From an uncultured delta proteobacterium (GTDB lineage: Bacteria; Myxococcota_A; UBA9160; JAFDET01): a stretch of DNA of 64,000 nucleotides. Below the pieces are notes generated by a model. The model did no database searches and had not been told where the DNA came from. It saw only the letters and a list, made by a program, of their open reading frames with translations. Location of the stretch: assembly GCA_947259215.1 (NCBI GenBank), contig CAMYLJ010000018.1, positions 1 through 64,000 on the forward strand, read 5' to 3'. Of this stretch, positions 74 through 4,502 are shown piece after piece (the first letter of the stretch is position 1; the number at the start of each line of letters is the position of its first letter). A program made the position numbers and the translations under genes.

Positions 74-202
74 GCCTAACAAGCGCTTGCAGCTGACCGA
101 GCCTAGCCAGGCGAATTCGGTCCTTGGTACCCTGGGGACCAACTCAGGCGCGTTCCCGCTGCTCGGGGCCGGCCCGACAGCTGAAGCGCCAGACCGTTAG
201 GC
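74..202 (+). other. attC recombination site 1 (129 bp)
   Basis: The left core GCCTAAC is at 74-80 and the right core GTTAGGC at 196-202. These are exact complements and match the RYYYAAC/GTTRRRY consensus. Inside them, CTTGCAGCTG (left) pairs with the complement of CAGCTGAAG (right), leaving one unpaired G on the left arm. That extrahelical base sets strand choice in attC hairpins. An inner GGTCC/GGACC pair lies in the variable part. The recombination point is expected between G196 and T197. Confidence 0.85.
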
Positions 203-222
203 CGCGCCCACTGGAGTACCCT

Positions 223-1011
223 GTGCTCACGCTGTACGACAATCCGTTCAGCCCCTTCGCCCGAAAAGTGCGGATGGTGCTTCGCTTCAAGGGCCTGCAG
301 TATGGCTCGGTCGACGCCTTGGCCTTGGCCGAGCACGACCGTCTCGTCCATGTCAATCCGCGCGCTGAGGTGCCTGTCCTCGTCGACGGTGGCGTCACGG
401 TGACGGATTCGGCCGACATCGTCTCCTACCTGGAGGATCGATTCCCGAATCCCGCAGTTCTTCCCATCGGCCCCGAACTCCGTGCGAAGGCACGGCGGTG
501 GCAACGACTCTCCGACACGCTGCTGGATGCGATCATCCACGACATCTCTATCTGGACTTGGCCTAGCCACCATCGATCAGATCAGCCCCCCAGGGTGCTG
601 CTCGAGGCAGGTCGACGGGAGTTGCACCAGATTCTGGTCGATCTCGAAAGCTCGATCGATGTCTCCGGCTTCGTGTGCGATCAGCTGTCCATCGCTGACT
701 TTTCGTTGTTTCCTCATGTTTCGTCACTGAAGCCACTTGCGGTTCTCCTCGAAGAGGCAGCGTACCCGAAGCTTCTACGCTGGAATCGGACGATGCGGAT
801 GCAGTTAGCTGTGCAAGAAGATCTCGAATACGTGAAACGGAGTGCGATCGAGAAGTTTGGCTCGGGCCAATCGCCCTACGAAGACGAGAAGATCGTGTGG
901 CGAGGGGACCGGATCGAGTGGCTCCTGGCCCATGGATTTCAAGACTGGTTTGTCTCGGAGCTCTCACGCGGCCGCGCCATCGTTCCGAATCCGGTGCAAG
1001 GCGCGGCCTAA
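223..1011 (+). CDS. Glutathione S-transferase family protein (integron cassette gene)
   Basis: Predicted soluble glutathione-dependent enzyme of 262 residues. The N-terminal thioredoxin-like domain starts LTLYDNPFSPFARKV, with the Ser/Cys-site segment SPFARKV, the cis-Pro motif VPVL near residue 50, and the glutathione-contacting TDSADI about 12 residues later. The C-terminal helical domain includes IADFSLFPHVSSL. I chose GTG 223 because a TGGAG Shine-Dalgarno-like sequence lies 6 nt upstream and the start is 21 nt after the cassette boundary; the frame is also open from ATG 124, but that would run through attC. The stop codon TAA (1009-1011) lies inside the left core of the next attC, as is common in cassettes. 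Substrate unknown; GSTs on cassettes may serve detoxification. Confidence 0.85.
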   Translation: MLTLYDNPFSPFARKVRMVLRFKGLQYGSVDALALAEHDRLVHVNPRAEVPVLVDGGVTVTDSADIVSYLEDRFPNPAVLPIGPELRAKARRWQRLSDTLLDAIIHDISIWTWPSHHRSDQPPRVLLEAGRRELHQILVDLESSIDVSGFVCDQLSIADFSLFPHVSSLKPLAVLLEEAAYPKLLRWNRTMRMQLAVQEDLEYVKRSAIEKFGSGQSPYEDEKIVWRGDRIEWLLAHGFQDWFVSELSRGRAIVPNPVQGAA

Positions 1012-2660: not shown

Positions 2661-3473
2661 TCAGTCCTTACGGCGACTCCTTCCGAGGGTCGTCTCCCGG
2701 TAGCGGCTCGACGCGGCGAGGGACTCGGGATCCAGCACGGCGCCGAGCAGCACGTCGCCGTCCGCAAAGGCCGTCAGCCCTGCGCCCATGCTGCGCGCGA
2801 CGGCGTTGACGTGCTCCTTGGTGACGATCACGGGAACCGTGGGCTTTGCCGCCAGCTCCGCTGCCAGGGCGGAAACCTCTCCCGCGAGGGCATCGGCAGC
2901 CACTACGCGGTTGACCAGACCTGCGGCCTTCGCTTCGGCGGGAGTGAAGCGTCGGCAAGTCATCACCAGCTCCTTCGTGAGCGCGGGACCGATCTCCCGC
3001 ACGAGACGCGGGATGCCCCCCCACGCGAGCGGAATCCCGAGATCCACCTCGGGGATCGAGAACACCGCATCCTCCGCGGCGACACGCAGGTCGCAGGCCA
3101 CCATCAACACGAGCCCGCCGCCCACGGCGTAGCCGTGGACCTGGGCGATGGTCACCGCCCGCATCTGCTCCACGGCATCGGCCATGCGCAGTCCGAGCTG
3201 GCCTACCTCACGCCGCTCGGACCACGCGGGGCCGCCCTCGCGCGGCACCGCCCCGGCCACCGGCGGGTCCTTGAGGTCCGCCCCGGCCGAGAATGCCCGC
3301 CCGGCGCCGCTCACCACGACGACCCGCACCTCCGCCTGCCGGTCGAACCAAGCGGCTGCGTCGCGGATCTCGCGCATCATGGTCGCCCCCAGGGCGTTCA
3401 GTCGCTCCGGGCGGTTCAGGGTGAGATGGCCCACAGCGCCATCGGTATCTGCGCGAATGGTCTCGAACTCCAA
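2661..3473 (-). CDS. Enoyl-CoA hydratase/isomerase family protein
   Basis: Crotonase-fold enzyme of 270 residues, expected to hydrate or isomerise an enoyl-CoA in the cytoplasm. Visible features are the N-terminal LTLNRPERLNALG, the oxyanion-hole segments SGAGRAFSAGADLKDPP (near residue 60) and VHGYAVGGGLVLMVACDLRV (near 115), and the PEVDLGIPLAWGG loop. The Glu usually found one turn after the second segment is replaced (PEVDLGIPLAW), so hydratase activity is uncertain. The start is TTG 3473: GAGGAG lies 8 nt upstream, inside the end of the upstream selenoprotein gene, and no ATG fits. The two genes are 2 bases apart and probably co-translated. The open frame continues far upstream, but that part is a shadow of the neighbour. 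Confidence 0.85.
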   Translation of the reverse strand: MEFETIRADTDGAVGHLTLNRPERLNALGATMMREIRDAAAWFDRQAEVRVVVVSGAGRAFSAGADLKDPPVAGAVPREGGPAWSERREVGQLGLRMADAVEQMRAVTIAQVHGYAVGGGLVLMVACDLRVAAEDAVFSIPEVDLGIPLAWGGIPRLVREIGPALTKELVMTCRRFTPAEAKAAGLVNRVVAADALAGEVSALAAELAAKPTVPVIVTKEHVNAVARSMGAGLTAFADGDVLLGAVLDPESLAASSRYRETTLGRSRRKD

Positions 3474-3475
3474 GA

Positions 3476-4360
3476 TCAGATCTCCTCTGGCGCGAATGCA
3501 CGGGGTCCTCGCGCCGGCGACGAGCCGCGGTTCGGCTTCCCGTCCGGAGCGGTCGGCGTATGCTCCGGCGTGTAGGCACGCAACTCCCAGCCGGCGTCGC
3601 CCGGCCAGCGCCAGGGCAGCGGGCAGATCTGCCCGGGTCGCTGAATCGCGAGACCGGCTTCGAGGGCCGCGCGAACGATGGCGCGCTGACCCTCCGCGTC
3701 GCCCGGCGCGCCGGTCTGATGGCCAAGGGGCGCATGCACGTAGACGGAACGCGGCGGCGCCACCGCCTCGGTGATGTCCCACGCGGAGGTCATGGATACG
3801 GTTGGCACGCCGGCGGCCTCGATCTCTCTCGCGATCAGTCCCACGGACTGATGGCAGACGGGTCAGGCGGGCACCAGGTAGGCGAGGTCCGCTTCCTGTC
3901 GCAGCACCAGGTCGCGAAGTCGCGGCGCGAGCTCCTCCCGCACACGACGCGCAGAGTAGATCCCGCCCATGAACGAGAGCGCCGGACCCGCAAAGCCGCC
4001 CAACACGCCCTCGGCGATCAGCTCGCGCAGCGCGCGCAGCGGAAACACACAGCCGGGATCGCGGGCTGCATCGCGAACGTCGTACCCGAAGTGGGAGACA
4101 CGCAGGCGCGCTGCCGGAGTGTCCGGCGGCAACTCCCGGTGCGACGTGTCGTTGCGAAAGTGGAAGGGCTCCTGGTCGTCGCGATGGACGCCGCCCGAGG
4201 CGATCAACGCCACTCTCGTGGCTGCGAGCGGGCGCTCGACCGGCGTCCAGGGCGTGGGCTCGCGCGCCGGGTCGTGTTCGACCCAGCGGTAGGGCGCCTG
4301 GCGCGCGTAGAGCCGACGCGTGCGTTCGATGTAGGGGACGGTGTTGGACGGCCTGACCAT
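3476..4360 (-). CDS. GrdB-like (glycine/sarcosine/betaine reductase family) selenoprotein
   Basis: A 294-residue protein if UGA 3865-3863 is read as selenocysteine. The halves on either side of the UGA are both in frame and both clearly family-like. Before it: MVRPSNTVPYIERTRRLY, VALIASGGVHRDDQEPFHF, SHFGYDVRDAARDPGCVFPL, FAGPALSFMGGIYS, DLAYLVPA. After it: PVCHQSVGLIAREIEAAGVP. The UGA gives a U-P-V-C redox motif at residues 166-169, where relatives carry U-x-x-C. A SECIS-like hairpin follows at the correct distance. ATG 4360 is preferred to the in-frame ATG 4393 because it gives the usual N-terminus. The cellular substrate is unknown: family members without GrdA/GrdC next to them are not proven glycine reductases. 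No sel genes are in the window. Translation is linked to the downstream enoyl-CoA hydratase. Confidence 0.82.
3834..3852 (-). promoter_or_regulatory. Bacterial SECIS-like hairpin
   Basis: In the mRNA, ten nucleotides after the in-frame UGA there is a perfect 8-bp stem, AUCAGUCC / GGACUGAU, closed by the loop GUG. Two further G-C pairs lie outside one mismatch. The loop begins 18 nt after the UGA and its first base is G, both as in known bacterial SECIS elements bound by SelB. The stem lies inside coding sequence, as bacterial SECIS elements must. Confidence 0.75.
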
Positions 4361-4369
4361 GCCCCGCCA

Positions 4370-4375
4370 ACGATA
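4370..4375 (-). promoter_or_regulatory. Possible -10 box of the selenoprotein gene
   Basis: TATCGT (read on the minus strand) lies 9 nt before ATG 4360. It resembles the close-set -10 hexamers found before other lead genes in this window. No clear -35 is visible. Confidence 0.3.
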
Positions 4376-4502
4376 CCTCAGCGGCCCGGGCACGTGTTGC
4401 CCAGTGGCCCAGCCGTTGACATTGCCAGCTGGCGTCGACCCGAAGAAGGCCTCGACCTCCCAGCGCTCGCTGCGGCCGGGTCACGCAGTCGAGGCGGCGG
4501 CG

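What the first reader, a model, noticed from the sequence alone, without database searches (positions are those of the whole stretch)
3476..4360. Selenoprotein hidden by an in-frame UGA, with SECIS-like hairpin
Standard gene calling would split this gene into two short frames. They meet at UGA 3865-3863, exactly where the GrdB-like family has U-x-x-C (here U-P-V-C). A perfect 8-bp hairpin with a GUG loop starts ten nucleotides later, inside known limits for bacterial SECIS elements. The gene is coupled to an enoyl-CoA hydratase and has no grdA/grdC neighbour, so its role may differ from glycine reduction.
Basis: partly seen in the sequence, partly recalled or inferred. Interest (0 to 1): 0.8.

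Follow-up and report, generated by a model that had tools for sequence, protein, structure and literature searches.

The report
Real selenoprotein, orphan PrdB-like family
This gene contains a genuine UGA codon read as the rare amino acid selenocysteine; it belongs to a widespread, already catalogued family of selenoproteins (related to D-proline reductase subunit PrdB) whose role in bacteria lacking the rest of that enzyme is still unknown.

Summary
The observation and the core of its interpretation are confirmed. The minus-strand frame 4360-3476 is broken only by TGA 3865-3863. Homology runs through it (79% identity before, 80% after, to the nearest relative). An 8-bp hairpin with a GUG loop starts 10 nt later and meets the published limits for a bacterial SECIS. 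Among 84 aligned rows the column is TGA in 82, TAG in one (Blastococcus, whose tRNA-Sec anticodon is CUA) and TGC in one, which has also lost the hairpin. Synonymous positions are bent to keep the stem: one Gly codon is GGA in 91 of 102 homologues against 14.6 expected. The host genome has selA, selB, selD (itself with an in-frame TGA) and tRNA-Sec(UCA), plus two Sec paralogues. The protein is closer to PrdB (E=5e-45) than to GrdB but far below the PrdB cut-off, and no PrdA/GrdE-type partner or GrdA was found in the genome. It is an orphan PrdB-like selenoprotein, a kind known from ocean metagenomes since 2005. The enoyl-CoA hydratase link is limited to a few close relatives. GST and MAPEG neighbours in two other clades hint at thiol chemistry. 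New member of a known kind; reaction unknown.

The parts
3476..4360 (-). PrdB-like selenoprotein gene, ATG 4360 to TGA stop 3478-3476, 294 aa with Sec at residue 166
   Evidence: Read-through frame; TIGR04483 E=5e-45 over residues 34-251, spanning the UGA; homologues aligned on both sides of the UGA; AlphaFold2 mean pLDDT 92.6 for the read-through chain
3863..3865 (-). Sec codon UGA
   Evidence: TGA in 82 of 84 aligned rows, TAG 1, TGC 1
3854..3856 (-). Cys169 codon (TGC), second redox residue of the U-P-V-C motif
   Evidence: Sequence; Cys at this column in at least 90% of 70 homologues
3834..3852 (-). SECIS-type hairpin, 8 bp stem, GUG loop
   Evidence: Fold; 95.2% of cells paired in 44 homologues, 13 double-sided changes, 0/500 shuffles reach the covariation score; codon bias for GGA, 91/102 against 14.6 expected
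2661..3473 (-). Downstream enoyl-CoA hydratase gene (TTG start 2 nt after the selenoprotein stop); probable co-transcription, not a conserved partner
   Evidence: Pfam ECH_1 E=1.2e-46; adjacent homologue only in L024 and L025

Best explanation
The gene encodes a stand-alone PrdB-like selenoprotein. Shown by comparative evidence (about 0.97): UGA 3865-3863 is decoded as Sec by the host's own SelA/SelB/SelD and tRNA-Sec, directed by the hairpin at 3852-3834 inside the coding sequence. Inferred (about 0.5): the Sec, at the start of a helix after a core strand in a U-x-x-C motif, is the nucleophile of a reductase with Cys169 as resolving thiol. Because no PrdA/GrdE-type (PF09338) subunit and no GrdA were found in the genome, it is unlikely to do D-proline or glycine reduction in the known way; it most likely uses cellular thiols directly to reduce or cleave an unknown small substrate (an electrophile, thioether or disulfide).
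For: Frame and motif. Homology on both sides of the UGA, from 79%/80% with L023 to 40%/40% with the paralogue L021. TGA in 82 of 84 rows, TAG in Blastococcus whose tRNA-Sec reads CUA, TGC once with hairpin lost. In 91 genomes of the class, 69 have the family, and every listed match without a TGA is a fragment that does not reach the Sec column. SECIS rules met; stem kept by synonymous choice and paired changes. selB, selA, selD and tRNA-Sec(UCA) in the same genome. Two Sec paralogues in the genome. GrdA and PF09338 not found in the genome; PF09338 absent from 35 of 36 homologue genomes, with one strong positive that serves as control. Single confident domain in the read-through model. Thiol link: GST and MAPEG genes on the same strand near the gene in two separate clades with different gene order.
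Against: No protein-level evidence (75Se, mass spectrometry). The catalytic role is inferred from the motif and from distant characterised relatives. Neighbourhoods are otherwise mixed. The GST/MAPEG link was noticed after the fact, is absent from most loci, and the host's own MAPEG genes are on other contigs. The GrdA search has no positive control. The genome is 95.7% complete, so a missing partner could lie in a gap.
Confidence: 0.75

Rival explanations
1. It is a true D-proline reductase (PrdB) or glycine/sarcosine/betaine reductase (GrdB-type) subunit working with a pyruvoyl partner encoded elsewhere.
For: PrdB is the best family hit, E=5e-45 across the Sec; U-x-x-C motif shared.
Against: 153.7 bits against a cut-off of 300; none of 91 class genomes passes it. 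GrdB models match only their C-terminal part. No PF09338 or GrdA found in the genome; 35 of 36 homologue genomes lack PF09338 while the same search rings at E=9e-96 in one.
Confidence: 0.04
2. The UGA is a real stop: a pseudogene or two separate genes, and the downstream homology is decay or re-initiation (GTG 3844).
For: A mechanical ORF caller sees two frames.
Against: The same codon is kept in well over a hundred homologues across at least seven labelled phyla, with SECIS constraint; Cys in one homologue; TAG matched by the tRNA anticodon in Blastococcus; equal identity on both sides.
Confidence: 0.01
3. It is functionally part of a beta-oxidation-type module with the adjacent enoyl-CoA hydratase.
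For: 2-nt spacing here; same neighbour in L024 and L025 at 36-38 nt. ECH_1 is the most frequent neighbour family, 6 of 139 proteins.
Against: No adjacent ECH in L023, L026 or L100 of the same clade; other ECH hits near family members are distant paralogues (about 30-34% identity), mostly on the opposite strand.
Confidence: 0.1
4. The protein works with glutathione-type conjugation enzymes: a Sec reductase that cleaves or reduces thiol adducts made by GST/MAPEG proteins. This is a specific form of the best explanation.
For: GST, PrdB-like and MAPEG genes on one strand in two separate clades, in orders GST-PrdB-MAPEG (L029, L031, L037) and GST-MAPEG-PrdB (L054, L064, L071, L098). MAPEG genes are scarce, 1-3 per genome, so their proximity is unlikely by chance.
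Against: Found after the fact; absent in most loci. GST genes are numerous, 10-29 per genome. Actinobacterial members live in hosts that as a rule lack glutathione (own knowledge). The window has a GST at 124-1011 but on the other strand about 2.5 kb away, and no MAPEG nearby.
Confidence: 0.2

Closest known systems
D-proline reductase subunit PrdB (TIGR04483; Clostridium sticklandii type)
   Same: Homologous over residues 34-251, U-x-x-C at the same place, Sec encoded by UGA
   Different: Half the required score, no PrdA-type partner found, host not a Stickland-fermenting Clostridium
Proline reductase PrdB-type selenoproteins of the Sargasso Sea and GOS metagenomes (PMC1088965, PMC2398784)
   Same: UxxC selenoproteins assigned to PrdB, among the most abundant marine selenoprotein families (42 and 235 sequences); very probably the same orphan family
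   Different: Those papers use the proline reductase name and do not discuss a missing PrdA in the passages read; sequences not compared here directly
Glycine reductase selenoprotein B, GrdB (PF07355, TIGR01917)
   Same: Distant homology of the C-terminal part, UxxC motif
   Different: E=1e-8, 34 bits against a cut-off of 602; family of about 430 aa; no GrdA or GrdE found in the genome

Membership tests
Bacterial selenoprotein gene | In-frame UGA aligned with Sec or Cys of homologues | tested here: met
   82 TGA, 1 TAG (matching tRNA-Sec CUA), 1 TGC of 84
Bacterial selenoprotein gene | SECIS: 3-9 nt loop, 4-16 bp stem, G in first two loop positions, 16-37 nt from UGA, MFE at most -7.5 kcal/mol | tested here: met
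   3 nt, 8 bp, GUG, 18 nt, -15.5 kcal/mol (limits from PMC13188914)
Bacterial selenoprotein gene | selA, selB, selC, selD in the genome | tested here: met
   All four above curated cut-offs; anticodon UCA
Bacterial selenoprotein gene | Selenium in the full-length protein | not testable with these tools
   Needs 75Se labelling or mass spectrometry
PrdB (D-proline reductase) | NCBIfam equivalog score of at least 300 bits | tested here: not met
   153.7 bits; 0 of 91 class genomes over cut-off
PrdB (D-proline reductase) | UxxC motif with Sec | tested here: met
   U166-P-V-C169
PrdB (D-proline reductase) | Pyruvoyl-forming partner subunit PrdA in the genome | tested here: not met
   PF09338 (GrdE/PrdA-type family; that it covers PrdA is own knowledge) absent in own genome; positive control
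PrdB (D-proline reductase) | D-proline to 5-aminovalerate activity | not testable with these tools
   Needs enzyme assay
GrdB (glycine reductase protein B) | TIGR01917 score of at least 602 bits | tested here: not met
   34.3 bits
GrdB (glycine reductase protein B) | GrdA in the genome | tested here: inconclusive
   No PF04723 match, but no positive control rang in that search
PF07355 (GRDB family of Pfam) | Score over the Pfam gathering cut-off | tested here: met
   22.1 against 22.0 bits, E=1.1e-4: marginal

The most novel reading that the evidence does not exclude
Orphan PrdB-like proteins are a separate, nearly Sec-obligate enzyme family of mostly environmental bacteria, with a fold not represented in the PDB, working without a pyruvoyl partner on thiol adducts (GST/MAPEG-linked), so that their annotation as proline or glycine reductase is wrong.
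Probability: 0.25. Interest if true: 0.55.

Novelty: new member of a known kind. Interest (0 to 1): 0.33.

Why it matters
It adds a well-supported selenoprotein, and two paralogues, in an uncultured Myxococcota-like genome and shows that ordinary gene calling can hide it in two ways. More generally, a common selenoprotein family carries the name of an enzyme whose other subunit is missing in 35 of 36 genomes checked, so its real reaction is an open and testable question. In the class sampled here no Cys form was seen, which suggests chemistry that needs selenium.

Tried and rejected
PDB sequence searches with the protein and with a 70-sequence profile gave nothing meaningful. Foldseek of the confident model against the PDB gave no match at E<=0.001 (best E=2.7e-3, TM 0.31), so structure gave no functional inference. 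Clustering of neighbouring ORFs was swamped by antisense ORFs of near-identical Holophagales; it was replaced by selected neighbours scanned with Pfam, which showed no common operon. A literature search for PrdB-like/GrdB-like found only Synergistota fluoroacetate work; one for selenoproteins in Myxococcota found nothing. Pseudogene and sequencing-error readings were rejected because the codon is kept in many independent assemblies.

Full report
Observation. The minus-strand frame 4360-3476 is open for 294 codons apart from TGA 3865-3863. An ORF scan splits it into 3863-4393 and 3476-3844, and also lists a 607-aa ORF at 2661-4484 in another frame that covers the whole gene and includes the downstream enoyl-CoA hydratase. 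The hairpin AUCAGUCC-GUG-GGACUGAU lies at 3852-3834, ten nucleotides after the UGA. Its loop of 3 nt begins with G and is 18 nt from the UGA, the stem has 8 pairs, and the 37-nt stretch folds at -15.5 kcal/mol, z -2.6. Published limits for bacterial SECIS are loop 3-9 nt, stem 4-16 bp, G in the first two loop positions, spacing 16-37 nt and MFE at most -7.5 kcal/mol (PMC13188914); all are met. Only 0.6% of the 1019 TGAs in the window, both strands, are followed by a perfect stem this long under these rules.

The codon is selenocysteine. A search of one genome for each of 84,980 species, with peptide patterns that avoid the UGA position, brought 80 loci. Counting those, the window and its duplicate fetch, and the two paralogues, the column holds TGA in 82 of 84 rows, TAG in one and TGC in one. 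The TAG is in Blastococcus tunisiensis; the tRNA-Sec in that genome has anticodon CUA, in line with the published UAG-Sec code of Geodermatophilaceae (PMC5330540). The TGC homologue (L096, Desulfobacteraceae) has lost the hairpin and part of the HQSVGLIAR sequence that encodes it. In 91 genomes of the window's own class, 69 hold the family; the matches listed without an internal TGA are fragments (profile 26-117, 15-118, 150-233, 20-118, 17-90) that do not include the Sec column at about profile position 148. Identity is about as high after the UGA as before it: 79/80% with L023, 56/55% with L027, 40/40% with the paralogue L021.

The hairpin is selected as RNA. In 102 distinct homologues the Gly codon of the 3' arm is GGA in 91 against 14.6 expected from the codon usage of the same genes. 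The wobble base at stem position 15 (mostly His) tracks the first base of the paired Ile/Val codon (T with A in 65, C with G in 26, C with A in 11), and the Gln wobble tracks the Leu first base (CAA only with TTG). In 44 aligned sequences 95.2% of cells pair, with 13 double-sided changes against 3.0 in shuffles, and no slid register comes close on pairing.

Machinery. The host genome (5.7 Mb, 95.7% complete) has selB just after a seryl-tRNA synthetase-like gene, selA, selD with its own in-frame TGA, and a tRNA-Sec with anticodon UCA. It has two more members of this family, each with one in-frame TGA.

What protein it is. The best named family is PrdB (TIGR04483, E=5e-45, residues 34-251), but the score is half the equivalog cut-off; GrdB models match weakly over their C-terminal part, and Pfam GRDB is marginal. 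All 70 aligned homologues match TIGR04483. Invariant or nearly invariant residues include G57, D71, R75, H90, P164, U166, P167, C169, R178, E181, R204 and Q225 (residue 166 is printed as C there). AlphaFold2 gives one confident domain (pLDDT 92.6) in which the Sec stands between a strand (159-163) and a helix (167-182). No solved structure resembles it by sequence or fold.

Partners. PF09338, the GrdE/PrdA-type subunit family, was not found in the genome. That search lacked a positive control, so it was repeated on 36 homologue genomes: it rings in one (E=9e-96) and in none of the others. GrdA was not found, without a positive control. The enoyl-CoA hydratase sits 2 nt downstream; orthologues (81-84% identity) follow the gene in L024 and L025 at 36-38 nt, but not in L023, L026 or L100 of the same clade. 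Other neighbours are mixed. One suggestive pattern: a GST and a MAPEG gene lie near the gene on the same strand in two separate clades with different order, although MAPEG genes number only 1-3 per genome. GST genes are common, 10-29 per genome. I treat this as a lead only, because it was found after the fact.

Known or new. PrdB-assigned UxxC selenoproteins were the third commonest selenoprotein family in the Sargasso Sea set (42 genes, PMC1088965) and had 235 Sec and 110 Cys forms in GOS (PMC2398784); [quoted passage not shown] The present gene is therefore a new member of a known kind. What stays open is the reaction, since the partner that defines D-proline reductase is missing. Sec insertion is near certain (about 0.97); the stand-alone thiol-linked reductase role is inference (about 0.5).

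Noticed in passing
L063:5472-5474 and L133:1501-1592: Blastococcus tunisiensis carries TAG at the Sec column of the PrdB-like gene and a tRNA-Sec with anticodon CUA. The UAG-Sec code of this family is known for FDH, UGSC and AhpC proteins; this adds a PrdB-like case. ARAGORN labels the tRNA tRNA-Pyl.
   Followed up: yes
window 2661-4484 (-): A 607-aa ORF in another frame spans the whole selenoprotein gene and runs into the real enoyl-CoA hydratase, so a gene caller could extend the hydratase over the selenoprotein and lose it.
   Followed up: partly
L029, L031, L037 and L054, L064, L071, L098: GST and MAPEG genes lie on the same strand close to the PrdB-like gene in two separate clades, in different order.
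   Followed up: partly
L101: A MAG titled Klebsiella pneumoniae carries a PrdB-like gene that branches beside Acidobacteriota on a long branch; probably a mislabelled bin.
   Followed up: no
own genome C2:27397-28017 and C14:38133-38900 (L021, L022): Two divergent Sec paralogues; the L022 type has a UPDCCRSVGLVAR motif and forms its own clade, shared across the order.
   Followed up: partly
L132:1471-2247 (-): A family member with U-P-L-D in place of U-x-x-C, that is Sec without the resolving Cys.
   Followed up: no
window 124-1011 (+): Glutathione S-transferase-like gene (GST_N_3 hit at 232-453) about 2.5 kb from the selenoprotein gene, opposite strand.
   Followed up: partly
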